A program made the translations under genes and the position numbers. Below the pieces are notes generated by a model. The model was not told the origin of the DNA, ran no database searches, and saw only the letters and a program-made list of their open reading frames with translations. Shown in pieces: positions 50,534-63,281 of a DNA stretch of 64,000 bases (positions within the stretch are counted from its first letter, which is position 1; each line of letters begins with the position of its first letter). This DNA is from an uncultured Bacteroidales bacterium (GTDB lineage: Bacteria; Bacteroidota; Bacteroidia; Bacteroidales; UBA11471), in NCBI GenBank assembly GCA_947589325.1, contig CANQAM010000004.1:49122-113121 (forward strand), given 5' to 3'.

Positions 50534-50817
50534 TCAATGATACCCATGCTTGGACTTTCTTCCGGACAAGGGAATGGAGAGTGTCCATGATGTCCTAATC
50601 ACGCCCTCCAACTTCCATTTGCGGAAGTAGTAATAGACCGTCTGCCACGGAGCGAAGTGGCATGGAAGCATCCGCCACAGACATCCGGTACTGTTGATGT
50701 AGAGGATGGCGTTCATGATGTCCCGAAGTTGATGCTTACGCTCTCTTTCTTGCGGATTAATGATTTTTCGATAATTTGCCACTGTTTGTCAGTGAGGTTA
50801 GTTGAATATTGACTCAT
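50534..50817 (-). pseudogene. IS5-type transposase remnant (N-terminal part, frameshifted)
   Basis: Read on the - strand from the ATG at 50817, the protein starts MSQYSTNLTDKQWQIIEK, the usual start of an IS5-group transposase (DUF4096). One base is missing in an A run, so the frame then shifts to KIINPQERERKHQLRDIMNA and runs to KWKLEGVI. A second single-base loss then shifts it again, with EDIMDTLH visible in the restored frame. The DDE catalytic region is absent. It is a dead fragment, marking the junction between the glycan region and the accessory island. Confidence 0.85.
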
Positions 50818-51478: not shown

Positions 51479-52567
51479 TTACGAGTTTTTGAGACGCCAG
51501 TATTTTTCTGGATTATTCTTTACAAACTTATCATACCATAAGATAAAATCACATAGTCCCATAGCAAGAGCTCGAAGCATATACGGAGAACCTCCGACAT
51601 GAGGCAGGTAATTATCAAGATTCATGGCAATCTCTTCCCTTTCGGTTGAAGTGTGTACGGCACCACCTGTTTGGAAAACAGCTGCTTTCAGCCATTGCCC
51701 AAGTTGTTTTGGTAATAATGGCGTATCCGTTTTGCGCTCAACTTTTTCCCAAAACTTCTTTTCGCTTTCCGCGAGATTATCAATATTATCAGGCTGAGAT
51801 GCTCCGAGAAAGAGGCTGCTCCAAGATAAATTAACGTTTTCCTTCGGGCTTTTCCCTATGACTATCGGCGGCAGAATACCCTTCTCGACCATATCGCGGA
51901 ACAGATACTCCAGAGCCTTGCGAAGATCGACATAAAGCCTGTTGTAATCATTAGATGTGTCTCCAAAATGAATCGGTACGAGTAGCCGCATCAGATGAAA
52001 TCCAACCGCATCAGCTAAGTCTAAACAATCAAGTGCATTGAAAACATCGGGATAAAGATTGCGTTCTATCGATAATTCATGGCAATGATATGTCACATAA
52101 GTTTTGATACGCTCGAAAAGGACACAACGTTCATTCTCTTCTTTGCCATTCCACATAACCTTGTCGTTTTTGGAGTAGAATCGACGGTTTGCAATACGCA
52201 TCCAGTCATTATCCCACTCATTGTCTACAGGGATTAAATCGCGAATATCATCTTCGCCCTGACCTGAAAGGACATACCATGGAATTGTCCTCTTATTCCG
52301 CTCGGCGAGTTTTTCAATTCGACGAAATACATTAACGAGAAACCTATCGGCTTTATCGGCATCATCTTTTTCGTAACGGCACTTTGCATCCAGTATGATT
52401 GCATCCCACCGTTTGTAGTCTTCTTCCAGTGCAGATTCAGCATCCTTCCAACACGGGAAAGGACAAAGTTCAATTCCTGCTACCATCTCTGCCTCCCTCG
52501 GGTAGGCAGAGGTAATCATGGGGTCATTCTCGACCCACAAAACCTGTATGAGCTTGTTGTCGCGCAT
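51479..52567 (-). CDS. Receiver-domain protein paired with the methylase-kinase
   Basis: 362 aa, no signal peptide. The N-terminal ~135 residues look like a complete phospho-receiver: acidic pocket Glu13/Asp15 in VLWVENDP, phospho-acceptor Asp60 in WDAIILDAKC, Ser101 in YVLSGQ, and Lys133 in RFYSKND. The remaining ~225 residues are an unrecognised, mostly helical domain (motifs DLRKALEYLFRDM, LPKQLGQWLKAA). No DNA-binding or nuclease motif is seen. It begins 15 bp after a gene encoding a histidine-kinase-type ATPase domain, so phosphotransfer from that protein to Asp60 is a reasonable inference. It would be the output arm; how it acts is unknown. Confidence 0.72.
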   Translation of the reverse strand: MRDNKLIQVLWVENDPMITSAYPREAEMVAGIELCPFPCWKDAESALEEDYKRWDAIILDAKCRYEKDDADKADRFLVNVFRRIEKLAERNKRTIPWYVLSGQGEDDIRDLIPVDNEWDNDWMRIANRRFYSKNDKVMWNGKEENERCVLFERIKTYVTYHCHELSIERNLYPDVFNALDCLDLADAVGFHLMRLLVPIHFGDTSNDYNRLYVDLRKALEYLFRDMVEKGILPPIVIGKSPKENVNLSWSSLFLGASQPDNIDNLAESEKKFWEKVERKTDTPLLPKQLGQWLKAAVFQTGGAVHTSTEREEIAMNLDNYLPHVGGSPYMLRALAMGLCDFILWYDKFVKNNPEKYWRLKNS

Positions 52568-52582
52568 AGTTGTATAAGTTTT

Positions 52583-54988
52583 TTAGAATACAAAAATAGT
52601 TTCCAAATTAGTTTTCTCGAAGGTGAGTTTGTAAATCACAGGGAACTCTGCTTCGGGCTGTGATATGACCTCGACCGTTCCGAGTCCTTCCATCAGAGAT
52701 TTAATTTCGAATCCGCCTTGTCCCGAATGAAGTGTACCATCCGCAGCATCTTCGTTAAGAGCTGTTGAAAACCCACTCATCAAAACATCTTCACCAGACA
52801 CACCCGATTTCAACGGACGACCGTTATTGGCAATCGTAATCACGATTCCTCCATTTTCCGACGTCCAATCAAAACGGATTTCATTGTTTGTCGAGTCGGG
52901 AGTAAAGCCATGTGCTTTAGCATTGGCTACAATATTGTTGAAGATCCGTTCAAGCAACTTTTCGGGCGCATAAAATATGTGCAACGCATCCGTATGTTCA
53001 TTCTTTATACCGCCAGTTTCATCATCAAAGTCAGGTATATCAGCCACATTGTTATAGCCCAGGTTCACCATTCTCACAGAAGGATCTGCGTGATTAGCAA
53101 TATATTCGTTGATGAACTTGTAGGGATTGATTTCCGCGTCCTTTCCCCAGTCAGACTTTTCAAACCGTAAAGACTCGACTTGCCTTTGAAGAGTTGATAC
53201 AGCATACTCAATGCTCTTCATCAGATTTTCTACGGTGATCGGGTTGTTACGGCCAATGATATCCGTCAGCTTGATACCCTCCTTGTGCTGCTCTGCAAAC
53301 ATCTTGAACACTTCCCAGTTTGAAGAAAAAGCGGAAAGAGTCTGAATCATCGCATGACGTATGCTGCGCACTTCACGCTTCTGTGAATCCAGCGTTTTTT
53401 GGAGTTCTTCCTCCAAGTTACCCATTTCAGATGAAAGCACATCGGAAATCAACTGTTCACGTTCCTCTGCAGTTTCAGGTACGGGGACAATAATTTGTCT
53501 AAGATCCAATCTGTTCAGGCGAGGAATATTTTCACCGGTCGTCTGTGCTTTTATTTGGTCGGACACTATTTTTGTTGATAGAACAGCGGCAAGGTATTTG
53601 GCACTAATACTTTCTTCAACAGGTCTAAATACCTTTACAAAATCGGAAGGAAATGCAATTTTCCCGGTAAATCCTTCGGTATAGACCGTTCGTATATTAC
53701 CGTTGGCAATAGCCAGTATAACTGCGTTCTCCGGGACTTGTATTCGCTTTTTACTGGTTGACACCTTTTCGCCCTCAACTTTCGTAGGAATATATGGTTT
53801 ACGGTGCATTGCCGCCGGAATCGATGACCCTGTGATAAAATATTCAGCAAAAATGTCTTTACCCCAACCAAGTTCCGGTATTTCTTCAACGAGCACCGAT
53901 AGAGGAATACCATTTTCTGGCTTCGGAGTAAAATAGAAAAACGGTGTAAGATCCGAGCCAACTAAGTTTGCGTATGGTACGACAACGCCAGCCCGATCTC
54001 CATCTGGTTCATATCCTTCTTGAGTATCCTCAATGTCGGCTTCGAAGGCTTCCATGAAGCTCTCCAAATCAAAAGTCGTGGTCCGATACACGTTTTTGGC
54101 GAATCGAGTATGCCCGCTCGCATCGCCAAAATGAATTTCTTTATTCTCAACACCTTTCGTAAGCACTATGACTGCCTGAGCTGCAGATGAGCCTGTAAAA
54201 ATATTGGAAGGAAGCATAACAACCGTAGAGATTGCTTTCTCCTCGATTAACTTTTCTCGAATGGATCGAACCCTGCTATCTTTACGGAAAAGGAACTCCG
54301 CAGAGACAATGCACGCCAGTTTACCGCCATCGGCCAATTTATCGTAGAGAACCCTTACTATATCCGATATTGCTTTATTTTCCTCATGAAGATAGACCGG
54401 AGAGGCAATGATAGCCGAGAATTTTTCGTTTGTCTTCATTCGCTCAAACGAATCAGCCAAAGCAATATCAGCCCGTTTATCAGCAAAATTCGCAAACAAA
54501 CGTATTTGACCAAGCGCCCAAGTAGTTTGATTCAGTTCCTCGCCAACCACAGGGTTTGAAAGAGCAATGGCATACGAATTTGTCCCTGCAAATGGATTGT
54601 AAACAGTAACATTTTCAGGGAATGAAGCCATCTTGCACATAAAGTCAGTAACTTCCTGCGGCTGAATATCAACGATGTTTGTATAGGAATTCGCTTCCAT
54701 TGCAAACAACTCATTAAGATGTTTTGAAAGGAAATTAAGCTCCTCTTGTGTGAGAATATCTCTCTTGAATTCGTATTGATTCAAAATATTCAGCACATCC
54801 TGCCGAACCCTATTTCCGGCAGCAATTCGGTAAGTTTCTGTAAGAAGACCAAGAAGACCAGACTTGTTAAGAAAGTTTCCTGAAATTATCTCGTACCGAT
54901 TTACTAATTCGGTTACATCGTAACGAGTTTCTTCGACGTTGGCGATATTGAGCGACTGGTCTGCGGAAGTAGAGTTGTTTTTTTGCAT
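52583..54988 (-). CDS. Type I methylase/specificity-like protein fused to a histidine-kinase ATPase domain
   Basis: 801 aa, no signal peptide. Residues ~100-280 resemble the HsdM-type N6-adenine methylase fold, with the SAM loop NPFAGTNS (131-138) and helices such as LADGGKLACIVSAEFLF. The catalytic NPPY/F motif reads SPVY (196-199, in IIASPVYL), so methylation is probably lost. Residues ~345-515 resemble half of a type I specificity subunit (GENIPRLNRLDLRQIIVPVP). A coiled segment with His545 in VRSIRHAMIQTL recalls a histidine-kinase dimerisation helix. Residues ~675-795 are a HATPase_c domain: N-box NNIVANAKAHGF, G1 IANNGRP, and G2 HSGQGGFEIKSL. It likely detects a DNA feature and signals to the receiver protein next door. 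It could instead be a moonlighting HATPase with no kinase role. Confidence 0.8.
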   Translation of the reverse strand: MQKNNSTSADQSLNIANVEETRYDVTELVNRYEIISGNFLNKSGLLGLLTETYRIAAGNRVRQDVLNILNQYEFKRDILTQEELNFLSKHLNELFAMEANSYTNIVDIQPQEVTDFMCKMASFPENVTVYNPFAGTNSYAIALSNPVVGEELNQTTWALGQIRLFANFADKRADIALADSFERMKTNEKFSAIIASPVYLHEENKAISDIVRVLYDKLADGGKLACIVSAEFLFRKDSRVRSIREKLIEEKAISTVVMLPSNIFTGSSAAQAVIVLTKGVENKEIHFGDASGHTRFAKNVYRTTTFDLESFMEAFEADIEDTQEGYEPDGDRAGVVVPYANLVGSDLTPFFYFTPKPENGIPLSVLVEEIPELGWGKDIFAEYFITGSSIPAAMHRKPYIPTKVEGEKVSTSKKRIQVPENAVILAIANGNIRTVYTEGFTGKIAFPSDFVKVFRPVEESISAKYLAAVLSTKIVSDQIKAQTTGENIPRLNRLDLRQIIVPVPETAEEREQLISDVLSSEMGNLEEELQKTLDSQKREVRSIRHAMIQTLSAFSSNWEVFKMFAEQHKEGIKLTDIIGRNNPITVENLMKSIEYAVSTLQRQVESLRFEKSDWGKDAEINPYKFINEYIANHADPSVRMVNLGYNNVADIPDFDDETGGIKNEHTDALHIFYAPEKLLERIFNNIVANAKAHGFTPDSTNNEIRFDWTSENGGIVITIANNGRPLKSGVSGEDVLMSGFSTALNEDAADGTLHSGQGGFEIKSLMEGLGTVEVISQPEAEFPVIYKLTFEKTNLETIFVF

Positions 54989-55025: not shown

Positions 55026-56051
55026 TTAATGGGGACTTTTGCAGTCATTCTTCAAAAGTCCATAATTTTTACAACTCTCTTTCATAATCTCAATAATTTC
55101 ATTGCGCAGATGCTCCGGTTCAACCACTTCTACATCTTTGCCAAAACCAAGAATGATTGCTTCAAGTTCTTTATTAGGAATTACATCGATGGAAATCGTA
55201 CGATTAATTTCATCGGTTTTCTGTGTATGATGAATAGGTTTTGCTGAAACGTACTGAAACCGCCTTTGTGTAAATTTAAGCACAACTCGCTCTACTTCTC
55301 CATGATTGGGAATAGTAATGCCTATTACATCGAAAAAATAGTCAAACGGATCTTCAATCAGAGAGTCAGGGATAAACCGTGCATTTATCGATTCGACATT
55401 CTTTATCCTGTCGAGAGCAAATACCGATATGTCTTTATACTCCGGATTATAACCAAGAATAAACCACCGGTTATTATATTGTTTGAGATAATATGGATGA
55501 ATTACAGCATCAAATGCGGATTTTCCAAATGGTTCGTATGTAATCTTTATAGGCTGCTCATTGATAATGAAGTTGAATAGCTCCTTGAATCGGTCGATAC
55601 CTCGTAAATCCACATTCGAATCAAAAGACAAGACATTCTTTTGAGTCTCCGATACCTTATATTTCTTTTTAAGTTTACGAATGATATCTGTCATCCAATC
55701 AAACTGAGGCATTCCGCGAAATGAAGCAAGCATATTCACCGTCGCCTCAAGTCCCATCAACTCATCATCTGTCAAATCCACGATTGAAAATCCCTCTTGC
55801 GAGTAACGATAATATTTTCGCTGACCATCTTGGTATGCGATTATCGGCGCTTGCATCGAAGGAGATAATTCCATTGCTTTCAAATCTGCGTAAACTTGAC
55901 GTTTACTTACGGTTGTTTCTGTACTCAGTTCCTTAGTGAGATAATCGCAACAAGCCTTTTGCAAGTCCTCTATATAGTACTTGCGAGAAAAGTTACTCAG
56001 ACACTTATCAAGGGCTTCATAACGTAATCGAGCGTTCTTGTTAGTAGCCAC
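55026..56051 (-). CDS. WYL-domain transcriptional regulator
   Basis: 341 aa starting at a GTG. The N-terminal winged helix-turn-helix (YEALDKCLSNFSRKYYIEDL, TVSKRQVYADLKAME) is followed by a WYL domain (ITYEPFG, HPYYLKQYNNRWFILGYN) and a C-terminal WCX extension (FGKDVEVVEPEHLRNEI). WYL regulators often control phage-defence operons and may bind nucleotides or nucleic acid. It is the first gene of the - strand operon, 37 bp before the methylase-kinase. A palindrome overlapping its promoter suggests autorepression. Confidence 0.92.
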   Translation of the reverse strand: MATNKNARLRYEALDKCLSNFSRKYYIEDLQKACCDYLTKELSTETTVSKRQVYADLKAMELSPSMQAPIIAYQDGQRKYYRYSQEGFSIVDLTDDELMGLEATVNMLASFRGMPQFDWMTDIIRKLKKKYKVSETQKNVLSFDSNVDLRGIDRFKELFNFIINEQPIKITYEPFGKSAFDAVIHPYYLKQYNNRWFILGYNPEYKDISVFALDRIKNVESINARFIPDSLIEDPFDYFFDVIGITIPNHGEVERVVLKFTQRRFQYVSAKPIHHTQKTDEINRTISIDVIPNKELEAIILGFGKDVEVVEPEHLRNEIIEIMKESCKNYGLLKNDCKSPH

Positions 56052-56886: not shown

Positions 56887-58566
56887 ATGGATAATCTTAA
56901 CCAATACCGTGAACTTGAACAGCTCTTGCGTAACGAGAGTGAGTTCTGTACAGAGGACGGGCATTTGTTGAAAAATGCCATAGTAGAGGCGGCTTTAGCT
57001 ATGTGTCCCAAACTGCTGCGGTTGCTTATGTCTAATGAAGCATTACGCAAGAACTTCTTTGTCGATATCGATGGTGTTACAGTATTTGACAAAGTGAGAT
57101 TTCAGAAGTTCGTGATGAACAAACGTTTTTTACCGGACAGCTATACAAGTTTCAAAAACAAAATAGGGCTGGTAGATGATAATGAAAACTTCATTGCGGA
57201 TAGTCGTGAAATCGTATTGGCGTGGCCATATAAAGATTGTATTTTAGAAGGGGGTGCTACACGAGAATCAGAAAAACGGTCGGAGATTTTTTGGAATGAA
57301 ATATTAGCACCAAATGAGATAAACCGTATATGCGAGCCAAAAGTGTTAACTAAATTCGAATATTTTGATGGCACAGGTCTGAATAATAAGGCTGGATGTA
57401 TCGTTAAAGGAAACAATTTGTTAGTTCTTTGTTCTCTTTTGAAAAAATATAGAGGAAAAGTCAAAATGATATATATCGACCCTCCGTATAATACAGGGAA
57501 TGATAGTTTTGCATATAATGATACATTCAATCATTCAACATGGTTAACATTTATGCGTAATCGTCTTGAAATTGCGAAAGACCTTCTTGCAGACGATGGT
57601 AGTATATTCGTTCAGTTAGATTGGAACGAAGTGCATTATTGTAAGGTGCTTATGGATGAAATATTTGGCCGTAATTGTTTTAGAAATGAGATTATTTGGT
57701 GTTATAATGGCCCCGGTTCACCCAATATGAAGCAGCTTAACAGAAAGCATGATAATATTCTTTGGTACTCAAAGAATTCTGAAAAATGGATATTTAATGG
57801 TGACGCTATACGCATGGAATCGGAAGTCCACCAAGGTGGGTTTAATGGAGAAATGAATGCAGATGTTAGTAATGATTATACGGAAAAGGGTAAAATCCCG
57901 GAAGATTGGTGGACATTATTTCATACAACAGAAGATCTTGAAAAAGAATTGAGGCAACTTTATAACAATGAGACATTCATAAAAGATGCAGATTGGTTTA
58001 AGGCAGCAGTTGCAGCTCGCATTCGGATTGATGGCAAGAAGAGAACCGGATATTTAACCGAAAAGCCCTATCGTTTATTGGAACGATTAATTAAACAATC
58101 CACAAATGAGAATGATTTGATAATTGACTTTTTTGCAGGGAGCGGTACAACCGGTTATGTGGCGAATTATTTAAATCGTAAATTTATATTGGTGGAACAA
58201 TTAGATGATATCATATCATTAATAAAAAAACGATTTGAAAACGATAATGTTTATTACTGTGAACTGGCTACGGCCAATCAGAAGTTTATCGAACAGATTG
58301 AGAAGGCAAACTCTAATGCGGAATTGGCAAATATATGGAATGAAATGCAGCAATTCGGATTTTTGTCGTGGAAAATCCAACCTGAACAAATCAATGAATA
58401 TGCTTCCGACTTTGCAGCTCTTTCACTGGATGACCAAAAACGTTTCCTAATCGAATGCTTGGACAAGAATCTACTCTATGTGCCTCTTTCGGAAATTGAT
58501 AACGAAGAGTTCGGAATAAGTGATGAAGATAAAAAGTTGAATAAGGACTTTTATTCCGTAGATTGA
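56887..58566 (+). CDS. mod: Type III restriction-modification methyltransferase (Mod)
   Basis: 559 aa. A beta-class N6-adenine methylase: catalytic DPPY in IYIDPPYNTGN (~197-207) precedes the SAM motif FFAGSGTTGY (~417-426). The region between, about 240-390, is the target-recognition part. N- and C-terminal extensions are typical of Mod, though the total is short for the family (often 600-700 aa). Both catalytic motifs are intact. It methylates one strand of a short site and sets the specificity for the Res partner, which starts 1 nt after its stop. The track ATG fits the family start. Confidence 0.93.
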   Translation: MDNLNQYRELEQLLRNESEFCTEDGHLLKNAIVEAALAMCPKLLRLLMSNEALRKNFFVDIDGVTVFDKVRFQKFVMNKRFLPDSYTSFKNKIGLVDDNENFIADSREIVLAWPYKDCILEGGATRESEKRSEIFWNEILAPNEINRICEPKVLTKFEYFDGTGLNNKAGCIVKGNNLLVLCSLLKKYRGKVKMIYIDPPYNTGNDSFAYNDTFNHSTWLTFMRNRLEIAKDLLADDGSIFVQLDWNEVHYCKVLMDEIFGRNCFRNEIIWCYNGPGSPNMKQLNRKHDNILWYSKNSEKWIFNGDAIRMESEVHQGGFNGEMNADVSNDYTEKGKIPEDWWTLFHTTEDLEKELRQLYNNETFIKDADWFKAAVAARIRIDGKKRTGYLTEKPYRLLERLIKQSTNENDLIIDFFAGSGTTGYVANYLNRKFILVEQLDDIISLIKKRFENDNVYYCELATANQKFIEQIEKANSNAELANIWNEMQQFGFLSWKIQPEQINEYASDFAALSLDDQKRFLIECLDKNLLYVPLSEIDNEEFGISDEDKKLNKDFYSVD

Positions 58567-58567
58567 T

Positions 58568-61315
58568 ATGGCAAAGGCACAGGCATTTAATATGGAAGAT
58601 TTCTTGCGCAACAACCTGCAAAGCAAGTTGCGCGAAGAACTGGGTCGTAAAACGATTGAGGAGAGGACAAAATTGCCGGACTATTTACTCACATCGCTTA
58701 ATCCCTCGATGCCTTTGCGTCCATATCAGGAACTGGCATTCAAGTATTTCCTGAACTATTGGGACAATGATTTCGACGACAAGCCGTTGAAACCGCATTT
58801 GTTGTTTCATATGGCGACTGGTAGCGGAAAAACACTTATCATGGCCGGCCTTATTCTCTATCTTTACACAAAAGGATATCGTAATTTCCTATTCTTTGTA
58901 GGCAGCAGCAATGTTGTAGGTAAGACAGAGGACAATTTCTTTAATCCAGCATCTCCCAAATATCAGTTTGCCCCATCTGTAAACATCGATGGTAAACAAG
59001 TGGAGATTCGCCGTGTAGATAACTTTCAAGGTGCAGATGAGAACTGCATCAACTTTTGTCTGACGACCACACAGGGTCTGCATAGCGACCTGAATACGCC
59101 CAAGGAAGGCGGCGTCAGCTATAATGATTTCAGCAGCAAAGGTCTGGTATTGATTTCAGATGAAGCCCACCACATGAATAGCGCTGCAAAGAAAGGTATT
59201 GATGTTGCAGAACAATTTAACCTGTTTAACGCAGATGATTTTGAACCATCTGATGACTGGGAGACAACGGTTATGCGCATATTTCATCGCTCTTCGGAAG
59301 ATGATCTGTCTAACGTCTTGCTGGAATTTACGGCGACGGAAGATTTTACAGACCCCAATATCGCAGATAAGTATGCGGACAAGATTATATTTGACTATCC
59401 ACTGAAGAAATTCCGAGAAGACGGCTATTCAAAAGATATCGCTGTTGTCCAAAGCGATGCGACGCCAGTGGAACGAGCGATTCAGGCTATCATATTGAGT
59501 CAATATCGACGAAAATTATTTGCATCAATCAAACAGAATGTGAAACCCGTGGTGATGTTCAAATCAAAGACAATAGCCGAAAACAAAAATTTCCACGATG
59601 AATTTATTGATGTCGTTAAGAATTTGACCGTTGATACCTTACGGCGAATTCGCTCTCACGCGAACAACGATATACTATCAGCGTTTAGTTACTTCGAAGA
59701 GAAAGGTATCACCGGTGAAAACCTTTTGCTTGAATTGCAAGAGGATTTCAAAGATGATAATCTGCTTTTGGTTGACGGTAATAATATCACTCCCGAAAAA
59801 CAAACATATCTCAACTCATTGGAAGCGAAAGACAACGAATATAGAGCTGTATTTGCGGTCGATATGCTGAACGAAGGATGGGATGTATTGAATCTATATG
59901 ATATAGTGCGCTTGTATGATACCCGCGATGCCAATTCAAATAAGCCGGGCAAGACAACAAATGCAGAAGCGCAGTTAATCGGTCGTGGAGCTCGTTATAT
60001 GCCATTTTCGGTGCCGGTAACGGCACTCAACACCAAACAGACAGAAACGACAGACACTATTGGCAACGACCAAGTCAATGCGTCTGTTCCGGTGAACGCC
60101 AGAAAATTCGATAATGATCTTTCCAACCGGTTAAGGGTATTGGAAACTCTGCACTATCATAGTTCTCACAACCCCAAATATGTGCAAGAATTGAAAACGG
60201 CTCTTACAAATTCAGGAATCATCGCGCCCAGAAGCCGCGAGGTTTCCGAAAAATTGAAAGACAGTTTTAAGAAAACGAGATTTTATACTGAAGGGTATGT
60301 GTTTGCTAATGAACAGGAAAGATATATTCTTAATGAGAAAGTAACAAGTATCGGAGCCGCTATATTAGATAGGGAATATTCAGTGCGTGTCAAAAGCGGT
60401 GATATGGAGCAAAGTTCTGCATTCAGCAAAACAACAGCCCAAGACAATGCTGCCTTACAGCAAAAACTGGAATTTCTCGGTGATTTTAGTAATCATATAA
60501 TTAGAGCTGCCATTAACAGATTTCCCGAGTTGGTCTTTCGTTCATTGTTAGGATATTTCCCTAACTTGAAATCTGTGAGGGAATTCATTGAGAGTGAAGC
60601 ATACTTATCAAAAATACGAGTGAAAATCATTGGGCAGGAAGCGGTGGTTAATAACTTATCTCCAAAAGAACAGCTTAATGTGGTTATTGAGGTTCTTCGT
60701 CAGATAATACCGCTGCTTGCAAAAGGAGGGATCGGCACTCGCGGAACAAAAGAGTTCAAAGGGCGTATGGTGCGAGATGTGTTCAAAGACCATACTTTCA
60801 AAGTCTCTGAGGGGACTGAAAATAAAGAAGAAGGAACATCGATCAAGACAACGACAAATACGCTTCTGCGTTTTGATGTTGATAATGCTGAATGGTATGC
60901 CTATGATGATAATTTCGGTACAGATGAAGAGAAATATCTCATCAAATACATTGAAAGTATCATAGATAAGCTGCAAAAGAAGTACGATGATATTTATCTT
61001 GTCCGCAACGAAAAGGACTTAAAAATATATGATTTTGAATCAGGCAAAGCCACCGAACCGGATTTTGTGTTATTTATGAGACGCAAACACGAGATCGGAA
61101 TCTATGATAATATTCAGATATTCATTGAACCCAAAGGGCAACATCTCAGAGGGACTGATGCATGGAAAGCCGAATTCGAGAAAAAAATTCATGTAGATGG
61201 TTATATTCAGTTCCATACACAAAATCAAAATTTTGAGATATGGGGTATGCCATTCTATACTGAATCCATGAAACAAGAATTTGACGATGCAATAAAAGAA
61301 AATTTTGAGATATGA
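58568..61315 (+). CDS. res: Type III restriction enzyme helicase/nuclease (Res)
   Basis: 915 aa, normal for Res. Superfamily 2 helicase motifs are intact: Walker A HMATGSGKTL, DEAH box in LISDEAHH, FTATEDF, and motif VI AQLIGRGARY. The C-terminal nuclease has the PD-(D/E)XK pattern PDFVLF ... IFIEPKG. It cleaves DNA lacking the Mod methyl mark after translocating or diffusing between two sites. It is translationally coupled to Mod. All key motifs are present, so the system should be active. Confidence 0.95.
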   Translation: MAKAQAFNMEDFLRNNLQSKLREELGRKTIEERTKLPDYLLTSLNPSMPLRPYQELAFKYFLNYWDNDFDDKPLKPHLLFHMATGSGKTLIMAGLILYLYTKGYRNFLFFVGSSNVVGKTEDNFFNPASPKYQFAPSVNIDGKQVEIRRVDNFQGADENCINFCLTTTQGLHSDLNTPKEGGVSYNDFSSKGLVLISDEAHHMNSAAKKGIDVAEQFNLFNADDFEPSDDWETTVMRIFHRSSEDDLSNVLLEFTATEDFTDPNIADKYADKIIFDYPLKKFREDGYSKDIAVVQSDATPVERAIQAIILSQYRRKLFASIKQNVKPVVMFKSKTIAENKNFHDEFIDVVKNLTVDTLRRIRSHANNDILSAFSYFEEKGITGENLLLELQEDFKDDNLLLVDGNNITPEKQTYLNSLEAKDNEYRAVFAVDMLNEGWDVLNLYDIVRLYDTRDANSNKPGKTTNAEAQLIGRGARYMPFSVPVTALNTKQTETTDTIGNDQVNASVPVNARKFDNDLSNRLRVLETLHYHSSHNPKYVQELKTALTNSGIIAPRSREVSEKLKDSFKKTRFYTEGYVFANEQERYILNEKVTSIGAAILDREYSVRVKSGDMEQSSAFSKTTAQDNAALQQKLEFLGDFSNHIIRAAINRFPELVFRSLLGYFPNLKSVREFIESEAYLSKIRVKIIGQEAVVNNLSPKEQLNVVIEVLRQIIPLLAKGGIGTRGTKEFKGRMVRDVFKDHTFKVSEGTENKEEGTSIKTTTNTLLRFDVDNAEWYAYDDNFGTDEEKYLIKYIESIIDKLQKKYDDIYLVRNEKDLKIYDFESGKATEPDFVLFMRRKHEIGIYDNIQIFIEPKGQHLRGTDAWKAEFEKKIHVDGYIQFHTQNQNFEIWGMPFYTESMKQEFDDAIKENFEI

Positions 61316-61649: not shown

Positions 61650-61967
61650 ATGAATAATATATTATCTGTTATTGATAAAATGCCGCAGGACGTGGCGGTG
61701 CGCATAGCCCGACAGGTGAAGGCGCGGCGGCTGGAAATGAATCTGACGCAGGAAGGATTGTGTGTACGTGCCGGCATCAAACTGCCTACATACCGGAGAT
61801 TCGAGCGGACGGGAGAAATATCGCTGCGCGGGCTGTTGCAGATTGCATTTGCACTCAATGCGCTGCGGGATTTTGAATCATTGTTTGCGCAGCGGCAGTA
61901 TCAATCGCTCGATGATGTACTTGCTGAAAGCAATGTGAAACGAAAACGGGGCAAGAAAAATGAATAA
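61650..61967 (+). CDS. HipB-like XRE-family regulator (antitoxin of a broken pair)
   Basis: 105 aa. A Cro/C1-type helix-turn-helix occupies ~18-80 (VKARRLEMNLTQEGLCVRAGI, LPTYRRFERTGEISLRGLLQ). Its basic C-terminus and its overlap with the start of a HipA-like reading frame show it was the antitoxin and repressor of a HipBA-type toxin-antitoxin pair. The toxin gene is now cut short, so this gene is an orphan that may still bind DNA. Confidence 0.82.
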   Translation: MNNILSVIDKMPQDVAVRIARQVKARRLEMNLTQEGLCVRAGIKLPTYRRFERTGEISLRGLLQIAFALNALRDFESLFAQRQYQSLDDVLAESNVKRKRGKKNE

Positions 61968-62354: not shown

Positions 62355-63281
62355 CTATCGCAATTCTGGTATCATTTTCAAGTATTCGTATATTTCATTA
62401 ACAGATATATTAGATTTAAGCATATTGACTATTTCTAATGCCTTATAATACTCAAATTTAGTAATGTCTCGCTTGCTTGTAATTAGCTTTTGAGTTAATT
62501 CATACTCAAAATAATCATAGAGTGTTATAGAAATTCTTTTCTTTTGTATACCATAATATTTTATCACCAAATTTAACAATTTGATATGAATTGTGGGCAT
62601 ATAAACCGAACCGTTGGTAATTTTATTTGATAGATTATCAAATATCTTTAATTGCAATTTACCTTCTTCTACTGCATTTGGATTGCAGGTTAGTTCTTCT
62701 GGATATGTTATTACTCTATTTGGTAATTCAGAATTCGTTTTTTCAATGTATTTATTTTTGATAGTTTTAATTATTAGTGTATGGTCGGTTTTCTGCTTTA
62801 ATTGATTGATAATATCTATCGCTATCTCGCATTCATATCGCGTAGTTCCTTTAATCGCTGTTTCTTTTTGATTGGTAAGTTCTCTATTGGCAAATGTATA
62901 TAAATCTTCGCCACAGAACACACCTTTATCAATATACTTTCTATAATAACTACTAATTTTGTGAATCGCTCTTTGGAGTGATTTATTTAAATCTGTTTTT
63001 TCACATTCTTTTAAAAACTTGGAAACTTCGTCGCATTGATTAAGCCCCTCTTTGCGAACGTCCAATACTTGTAGTTTTTCTCTATTTCTTTCCTGTCGCT
63101 CTAATTTATTAGATTTAGTAATATATTTCGGTTTATGACTTCTGAATAAATCAAAAATACTGACAGTTGTTAGATTATAAACTTTATTATATGCTGATTT
63201 TTTTGAATTCTGTGTAATAGCTCTTTCCTTTTTGACTATACCCCGGCAAAATGACCTTTTTAAGAGCGCGTGTTGCTGCAC
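62355..63281 (-). CDS. Hypothetical protein, AT-rich, no good start
   Basis: The frame is open for 308 codons, Lys- and Ile-rich, with no family I can recognise. The track start is a GTG and there is no internal ATG until about codon 229, so the true start is lost, is non-ATG, or lies in another frame. A second frame just upstream begins with an ATG and reads MTRGAATRALKKVILPGYSQ before stopping, which could be the original N-terminus separated by a frameshift. The low GC is unlike the glycan region and suggests transfer. Confidence 0.5.
   Translation of the reverse strand: MQQHALLKRSFCRGIVKKERAITQNSKKSAYNKVYNLTTVSIFDLFRSHKPKYITKSNKLERQERNREKLQVLDVRKEGLNQCDEVSKFLKECEKTDLNKSLQRAIHKISSYYRKYIDKGVFCGEDLYTFANRELTNQKETAIKGTTRYECEIAIDIINQLKQKTDHTLIIKTIKNKYIEKTNSELPNRVITYPEELTCNPNAVEEGKLQLKIFDNLSNKITNGSVYMPTIHIKLLNLVIKYYGIQKKRISITLYDYFEYELTQKLITSKRDITKFEYYKALEIVNMLKSNISVNEIYEYLKMIPELR

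What the first reader, a model, noticed from the sequence alone, without database searches (positions are those of the whole stretch)
54391..54405. Methylase catalytic motif is SPVY instead of NPPY
The domain keeps a SAM-type loop (NPFAGTNS), but the catalytic tetrapeptide that holds the target adenine is SPVY. In the N6-adenine methylase family the first Asn/Asp is essential. The domain has probably changed from a modifying enzyme to a DNA or SAM sensor, which fits its fusion to a kinase-type ATPase.
Basis: partly seen in the sequence, partly recalled or inferred. Interest (0 to 1): 0.72.

Follow-up and report, generated by a model that had tools for sequence, protein, structure and literature searches.

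The report
Dead DNA-methylase sensor fused to kinase
A bacterial protein that looks like a DNA-methylating enzyme has lost its catalytic motif and is fused to a histidine kinase with its own partner receiver protein, so it most likely acts as an internal sensor that signals next to restriction (anti-virus DNA-cutting) systems rather than as an enzyme.

Summary
SPVY is encoded at 54392-54403 (-) in an 801-aa protein (52583-54988 -) made of an HsdM-like N6-methylase domain, an HsdS-like specificity domain (TRD), a DHp helix and a HATPase. The gene sits in a three-gene unit: WYL regulator, fusion, receiver protein. I found 26 further full-length members in Bacteroidota genomes, a Myroides plasmid and a viral contig. 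The receiver gene lies directly downstream in all 26 full-length members whose contig continues; its Asp and Lys are invariant, as are the kinase His, N-box and glycine boxes. The methylase motif IV is not: [DN]PP[FYW] occurs in 4 of 27 fusions against 16 of 16 ordinary HsdM genes in the same loci. The near subfamily (5 of 5) reads SP[VA][FY]. The motif I acid is Asn in nearly all of the core clade. Best reading: a cytoplasmic two-component system whose sensor is a recycled, non-catalytic type I methylase/specificity unit, beside type I, III or IV restriction systems. Ligand (DNA, methylation state, SAM or protein) and output are inferred, not shown. It resembles HEF_HK/Response_reg_2 systems but fails their Pfam test.

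The parts
55026..56051 (-). WYL-WCX transcription regulator, first gene of the three-gene unit
   Evidence: Pfam WYL 2.8e-12 and WCX 2.4e-12; a homologue lies near the fusion in 20 of the 28 loci, window included
52583..54988 (-). 801-aa fusion: HsdM-like domain, HsdS-like TRD, DHp helix, HATPase (sensor histidine kinase with pseudo-methylase input)
   Evidence: 37 bp after the WYL gene
54029..54661 (-). N6_Mtase (HsdM-like) domain, residues 110-320
   Evidence: Pfam PF02384 E=3.5e-22; PDB 3lkd type I M protein 6.1e-10
54575..54598 (-). degenerate SAM motif I, NPFAGTNS (residues 131-138); canonical DPxxG in HsdM neighbours
54392..54403 (-). motif IV SPVY (residues 196-199) in place of NPPF/NPPY
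53402..53797 (-). Methylase_S (type I specificity/TRD) domain, residues 398-529
   Evidence: Pfam PF01420 5.6e-6, above gathering score; 18 of 26 relatives match
53354..53356 (-). predicted phospho-acceptor His545 of the DHp helix
   Evidence: invariant in 27 of 27 and 23 of 23; the family profile aligns it with the H of SHELRTPL in the HK853 chain 2c2a
52652..52963 (-). HATPase_c domain, residues 676-779 (N-box N685/N689, G1 N721-G723, G2 G756-G758)
   Evidence: Pfam HATPase_c 2.5e-4, below gathering for this one sequence but 25 of 26 members match; profile to PDB kinases 2.3e-13
51479..52567 (-). partner receiver protein, 362 aa: receiver domain (about residues 4-164, phospho-acceptor D60, K133) plus all-helical C-terminal region of unknown function
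   Evidence: D60 and K133 invariant in 24; AlphaFold2 model matches receiver domains at Z about 13, rmsd 2.1-2.6 A; 15 bp after the fusion gene
56887..58566 (+). context: divergent type III modification gene (mod), with a canonical DPPY motif
   Evidence: Pfam N6_N4_Mtase 8.1e-54, TypeIII_RM_meth 3.5e-22; 'IDPPYNTG' in the translation
58568..61315 (+). context: type III restriction gene (res)
   Evidence: PADLOC REase_III 1.2e-126

Best explanation
The protein is a soluble sensor histidine kinase whose input module is a recycled type I methylase plus specificity domain that no longer catalyses methyl transfer. Inferred mechanism: the HsdM/TRD-like part binds a DNA- or restriction-complex-related signal (most likely DNA in a particular sequence or methylation state). 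Binding is relayed through the TRD-to-DHp helices, the HATPase phosphorylates His545, and the phosphate passes to Asp60 of the receiver protein encoded by the next gene. That protein then acts, through its C-terminal region, on the neighbouring restriction system or another effector. The WYL protein controls the operon. Shown here: domain make-up, loss of the catalytic motif, invariance of the kinase and receiver residues, and the fixed gene pair. Inferred: lack of methylase activity, phosphotransfer, ligand and output.
For: Motif IV is degenerate in 23 of 27 fusions ([DN]PP[FYW]; 22 of 27 if S is allowed first), against 0 of 16 HsdM genes in the same loci (Fisher p=7.7e-8 for the looser test, rows not independent). 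Invariant across the family: DHp His, N-box Asn and His, G1 N-x-G, G2 G-x-G. The HK-region profile finds PDB sensor kinases over DHp+CA (2c2a, 3dge: 3.2e-12; 3a0r: 2.3e-13) with the His in register. A receiver gene follows on the same strand within -44 to +15 bp in every one of the 27 members whose contig continues (26 full-length fusions and one partial), with invariant Asp and Lys and a receiver fold in the model. Purifying selection: L111/L112 dN 0.013, dS 0.083; L005/L003 dN 0.09, dS 0.72. A type I M gene follows the receiver gene in 14 loci; others sit beside type III (window), HsdR (L104) or McrBC (L109).
Against: Four members keep NPPF/NPPW, two of them near-identical, so some could still methylate. 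No ligand, phosphorylation or activity data exist. The fusion model was poor (mean pLDDT 50.7), so domain contacts are not modelled. The acidic pair of the receiver is E-N in the window copy (D-D in most), which may weaken metal binding. The window copy alone scores below Pfam's gathering cut-off for HATPase_c.
Confidence: 0.72

Rival explanations
1. The methylase domain is still an active, unusual DNA methylase (SPVY tolerated), and the kinase part regulates it.
For: Motif II acid (GEE/GQE) and the first glycine of motif I are kept in the core clade; an aromatic residue is kept at motif IV position 4 in 16 of 27; four members have NPPF/NPPW. Ser is accepted at position 1 in N4-cytosine methylases (general knowledge).
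Against: Motif IV takes 21 different forms in 27 proteins, including forms without N/D/S or without any aromatic; motif I has Asn for Asp in nearly all the core clade; in some members the methylase domain has lost motif I altogether while the kinase stays intact.
Confidence: 0.1
2. It is a GHKL ATPase clamp of the MORC/paraMORC type working on DNA in the restriction complex, not a phospho-relay kinase.
For: GHKL ATPases beside restriction genes are known as paraMORCs (PMC8011034, citing Iyer 2008). HATPase_c is weak in the window copy.
Against: Matches are to HATPase_c (25 of 26), with no HATPase_c_3 among the families listed; the DHp His is invariant and in register with HK853; a receiver gene with invariant Asp/Lys always follows.
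Confidence: 0.08
3. A variant of the sensor model: the HsdM/TRD-like part is a docking module that binds the restriction complex (HsdM-HsdS) or competes with it, so the kinase senses the state of the enzyme rather than DNA directly.
For: In L111/L112 the fusion is 97% identical although the HsdS recognition domains are swapped (12-40%), so the core of the sensor does not follow the site recognised by the enzyme.
Against: L111/L101 share 91% identical HsdM but only 38% identical fusions, so the sensor is not tied to one HsdM either. The module also occurs without HsdM: type III in the window, McrBC in L109, a viral contig in L046.
Confidence: 0.25
4. Decaying pseudogene or dispensable remnant.
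For: Degenerate catalytic motifs; the window copy lacks the 190-aa N-terminal domain found in L002, L004 and L005.
Against: No stops inside any full-length member in the genome searches; low dN/dS; invariant kinase residues; fixed operon with the receiver gene.
Confidence: 0.03

Closest known systems
HEF_HK / Response_reg_2 two-component-like pairs (PF19191/PF19192; Bellieny-Rabelo 2021, PMC8011034)
   Same: Predicted soluble kinase and receiver genes side by side, enriched next to restriction-modification genes, function unknown.
   Different: Their sensor part is a paraMORC-type HATPase_c_3 and their neighbours are mostly type II with C5 methylases. Here the sensor is a pseudo-HsdM plus TRD, neighbours are mostly type I, a WYL gene is usual, and no member matches either Pfam model.
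Type I methylase HsdM and specificity subunit HsdS
   Same: N6_Mtase and Methylase_S domains by profile.
   Different: Motif IV and the motif I acid are not conserved; M and S parts lie in one chain that ends in a histidine kinase.
Sensor histidine kinases of the HK853 type (PDB 2c2a, 3dge)
   Same: DHp His, N, G1 and G2 boxes; partner receiver.
   Different: The input is a methylase/specificity unit; the usual membrane or PAS/GAF inputs were not among the Pfam matches.
MADS (methylation-associated defence system), MAD2/MAD5
   Same: Weak profile matches to its methylase and specificity proteins.
   Different: Far below the NCBIfam cut-off (30 against 400 bits for MAD5). Absence of the other MADS genes was not searched for specifically.
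Detocs defence two-component system (own knowledge)
   Same: A kinase-receiver relay used in defence.
   Different: Different sensor; a single receiver gene here; no homology test could be run.

Membership tests
Active N6-adenine methylase (HsdM/N6_Mtase) | N6_Mtase profile match above gathering score | tested here: met
   79.5 bits against 20.4
Active N6-adenine methylase (HsdM/N6_Mtase) | motif IV [DN]PP[FYW] | tested here: not met
   SPVY in the window; 4 of 27 family members meet it, 16 of 16 HsdM neighbours do
Active N6-adenine methylase (HsdM/N6_Mtase) | acidic residue opening motif I (DPxxG) | tested here: not met
   NPFAGTNS; 17 of 18 core members have N, 16 of 16 HsdM neighbours have D
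Active N6-adenine methylase (HsdM/N6_Mtase) | methyl transfer to DNA | not testable with these tools
   needs a methylome or in vitro assay
Two-component system | DHp domain with phospho-acceptor His | tested here: met
   invariant His aligned to SHELRTPL of HK853
Two-component system | HATPase_c catalytic domain with N, G1, G2 boxes | tested here: met
   25 of 26 members match HATPase_c; invariant residues; profile to PDB kinases 2.3e-13
Two-component system | cognate receiver domain with Asp and Lys | tested here: met
   adjacent gene in all 27 testable loci; D60 and K133 invariant; receiver fold Z about 13
Two-component system | phosphotransfer from His to Asp | not testable with these tools
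   biochemistry needed
HEF_HK / Response_reg_2 | match to PF19191 in the kinase or PF19192 in the receiver | tested here: not met
   0 of 26 fusions and 0 of 24 receivers at E up to 0.1
HEF_HK / Response_reg_2 | location beside restriction-modification genes | tested here: met
   type III in the window; type I M gene next to the receiver in 14 loci
MADS | MAD5 equivalog cut-off (NF047740) | tested here: not met
   30.3 bits against 400
Detocs | homology of its kinase and receiver genes | not tested
   no named Detocs sequence was available; no PADLOC (2023) model matches the window receiver protein

The most novel reading that the evidence does not exclude
A two-component system in which a dead type I methylase/specificity unit reads the sequence or methylation state of DNA inside the cell and, through a histidine-to-aspartate phosphorelay, switches restriction or another defence effector on or off, so that restriction is under direct epigenetic feedback.
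Probability: 0.35. Interest if true: 0.85.

Novelty: new variant of a known kind. Interest (0 to 1): 0.6.

Why it matters
If the reading holds, bacteria have turned a restriction enzyme's own recognition unit into a signalling sensor, which would give restriction systems a phosphorelay input that could report foreign or unmethylated DNA. It would also mean that genes now annotated as 'N-6 DNA methylase' (for example WP_131541126.1 on the Myroides plasmid) are probably not methylases, which matters for methylome assignment and for defence-gene catalogues. The three genes are compact and testable in a laboratory strain.

Tried and rejected
(1) HEF_HK/Response_reg_2 membership: rejected by Pfam scans of all members. 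(2) MADS: below cut-off. (4) Output domain of the receiver protein: Foldseek/VIA matches cover only the receiver part; the C-terminal region stays untested as a fold. (5) 'Sensor reads the same site as the neighbouring HsdS': not upheld, since fusions 97% identical sit beside swapped HsdS (L111/L112). Only the N-terminal domain of the Bacteroides members varies like an HsdS TRD (L002/L005). (6) Similarity of that N-terminal domain to the locus's own HsdS: none found by hhalign (at most 3% probability); its similarity to the family's own TRD is weak (69%, P=5.5e-6). (7) Phyla outside Bacteroidota: among 72,556 plasmids only Myroides has a full-length match, and no phage record has one covering 80%; chromosomes of other phyla could not be searched. 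(8) Literature: ten searches found no description of an N6_Mtase/Methylase_S/HATPase fusion; open-access papers only.

Full report
What is there. The ORF 52583-54988 (-) encodes 801 residues; SPVY is residues 196-199, at 54392-54403, and the motif I-like loop NPFAGTNS is residues 131-138. Pfam gives N6_Mtase at 110-320 (E=3.5e-22), Methylase_S at 398-529 (5.6e-6) and HATPase_c at 676-779 (2.5e-4, below gathering for this one sequence). In PDB sequence space the best matches are type I M proteins (3lkd, EcoR124II). The window's genome (2.35 Mb, 61 contigs) holds one copy.

Neighbourhood. On the same strand, 37 bp upstream, lies a WYL-WCX protein (55026-56051), and 15 bp downstream a 362-aa protein (51479-52567) with no Pfam match of its own. 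A complete type III restriction-modification pair starts divergently at 56887.

Homologues. Four Bacteroides or Porphyromonadaceae MAG loci (54-70% identical), a Myroides plasmid (24%), a viral-collection contig with a phage-type muramidase nearby (muramidase) and further Bacteroidota genomes give 27 full-length fusions including the window's, plus one partial. By my count of the hit tables, 22 genomes out of roughly 1,110 searched, about 2%, hold one; this is a lower bound because only a few candidates per genome were scored. The WYL-fusion-receiver order recurs: the receiver gene is the next gene on the same strand in all 27 members whose contig continues (gap -44 to +15 bp), and a WYL gene is nearby in 20 of 28 loci. 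An ordinary HsdM gene follows the receiver gene in 14 loci; other loci sit beside HsdR (L104), McrBC (L109) or, in the window, type III.

Catalytic motif. In one alignment with 16 HsdM proteins from the same loci, HsdM has NPP[FY] in 16 of 16 and DPxxG in 16 of 16. The fusions have [DN]PP[FYW] in 4 of 27 (5 of 27 if Ser is allowed first) and 21 different tetrapeptides, for example SPVY, SPVF, SPAY, NFPF, NAPF, TPPF, VPPF, YPPM, DLPI, DLPS. The window's nearest relatives all have SP[VA][FY]. Motif I opens with Asn in 17 of 18 core members; a second clade (L106, L109, L114) keeps the canonical DPVAGTGG or DPVAGSGG but has DLP[IS] for motif IV; a third group has lost motif I. On a tree built without motif IV, the NPP state needs three changes; several branches are long and the deep order is uncertain. 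For the most diverged rows (L104, L105, L107, L108, L110, L115, L116) the exact placing of motif IV is also uncertain; without them the count is 3 of 20 by the strict consensus.

Kinase and receiver. Across the family the only invariant columns outside the TRD helix are His545, the N-box Asn and His, and the G1 and G2 residues. A profile of the C-terminal 270 residues finds solved sensor kinases across DHp and CA domains (3a0r 2.3e-13; 2c2a and 3dge 3.2e-12), and its invariant His falls on the phospho-acceptor His of SHELRTPL in HK853. A profile of the partner proteins finds receiver domains (5.5e-5), its Asp60 and Lys133 are invariant among 24, and the AlphaFold2 model of the window copy matches receiver domains over residues 4-164 at Z about 13. 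So 'kinase-type ATPase' can be sharpened to a sensor histidine kinase with a cognate receiver. Phosphotransfer itself is inferred.

Selection and modular evolution. The fusions are under purifying selection (L111/L112 dN 0.013 against dS 0.083; L005/L003 0.09 against 0.72). The Bacteroides members L002, L004 and L005 carry an extra N-terminal region of about 190 residues, weakly similar to the family's own TRD (hhalign probability 69%). Between L002 and L005 this region is 22-50% identical while the rest of the fusion is mostly 82-100%, M is 94% and R is 93%; the HsdS recognition domains are 10-30%. That is the mosaic expected of an exchangeable recognition domain. The window copy lacks this region cleanly in frame, and L003 has a 78-bp tandem repeat there. 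Conversely, L111 and L112 have 97% identical fusions beside swapped HsdS genes, and L111 and L101 have 91% identical HsdM beside 38% identical fusions, so the sensor is not locked to the neighbouring enzyme.

Output. The receiver proteins' C-terminal regions vary: an all-helical part in the window, a matching S1/CSD-like tail in one member and a Schlafen AlbA_2 domain in L109. This fits an output on nucleic acids, but it is a weak hint.

Known relatives. The closest published idea is the HEF_HK/Response_reg_2 pair next to restriction genes, with a paraMORC-type ATPase as presumed sensor (PMC8011034). None of our 26 fusions or 24 receivers matches those Pfam models, so this is an analogous but separate family by that test. 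WYL regulators of restriction-like systems are known from BREX (BrxR, PMC9122589). MADS models match only weakly.

Verdict. What it senses and what the receiver does remain open. The finding is a new variant of a known kind (cytoplasmic two-component systems and restriction-linked kinase/receiver pairs), with a sensor domain that I did not find described in the literature that could be searched.

Noticed in passing
L109:2438-3385: The receiver partner in this genome is fused to a Schlafen AlbA_2 domain and is followed by McrBC-type genes, so the relay may drive a different effector there.
   Followed up: partly
L002:9416-10060, L005:5453-6140: The N-terminal TRD-like region of the fusion differs strongly between two otherwise near-identical loci, like a swapped specificity domain.
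   Followed up: partly
L003:4132-4435: A 78-bp tandem repeat (3.9 copies) stands where relatives have the N-terminal domain; the MAG sequence has ambiguous bases there, so the reading frame cannot be judged.
   Followed up: partly
L046:5948-11313: The fusion and receiver genes lie near a phage-type N-acetylmuramidase on an IMG/VR contig, so the module may travel on a prophage.
   Followed up: partly
L100, L106, L114, L116: Several fusions begin with a HARE-HTH-like domain (4 of 26 match Pfam HARE-HTH; which four was read from their similar N-termini), another domain known from restriction and chromatin proteins.
   Followed up: no
window 50537-50782 (-): Fragment of an IS4/5-family transposase (DUF4096, 3.4e-19) at the downstream edge of the island, next to a carbohydrate-use locus.
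   Followed up: no
window 61650-61967 (+) and 62355-63281 (-): Small HTH protein resembling restriction control proteins after the type III pair, and an orphan 308-aa protein without a convincing family.
   Followed up: no
L106:5446-8328: A NACHT/STAND-type NTPase gene lies just upstream of the fusion in this locus.
   Followed up: no
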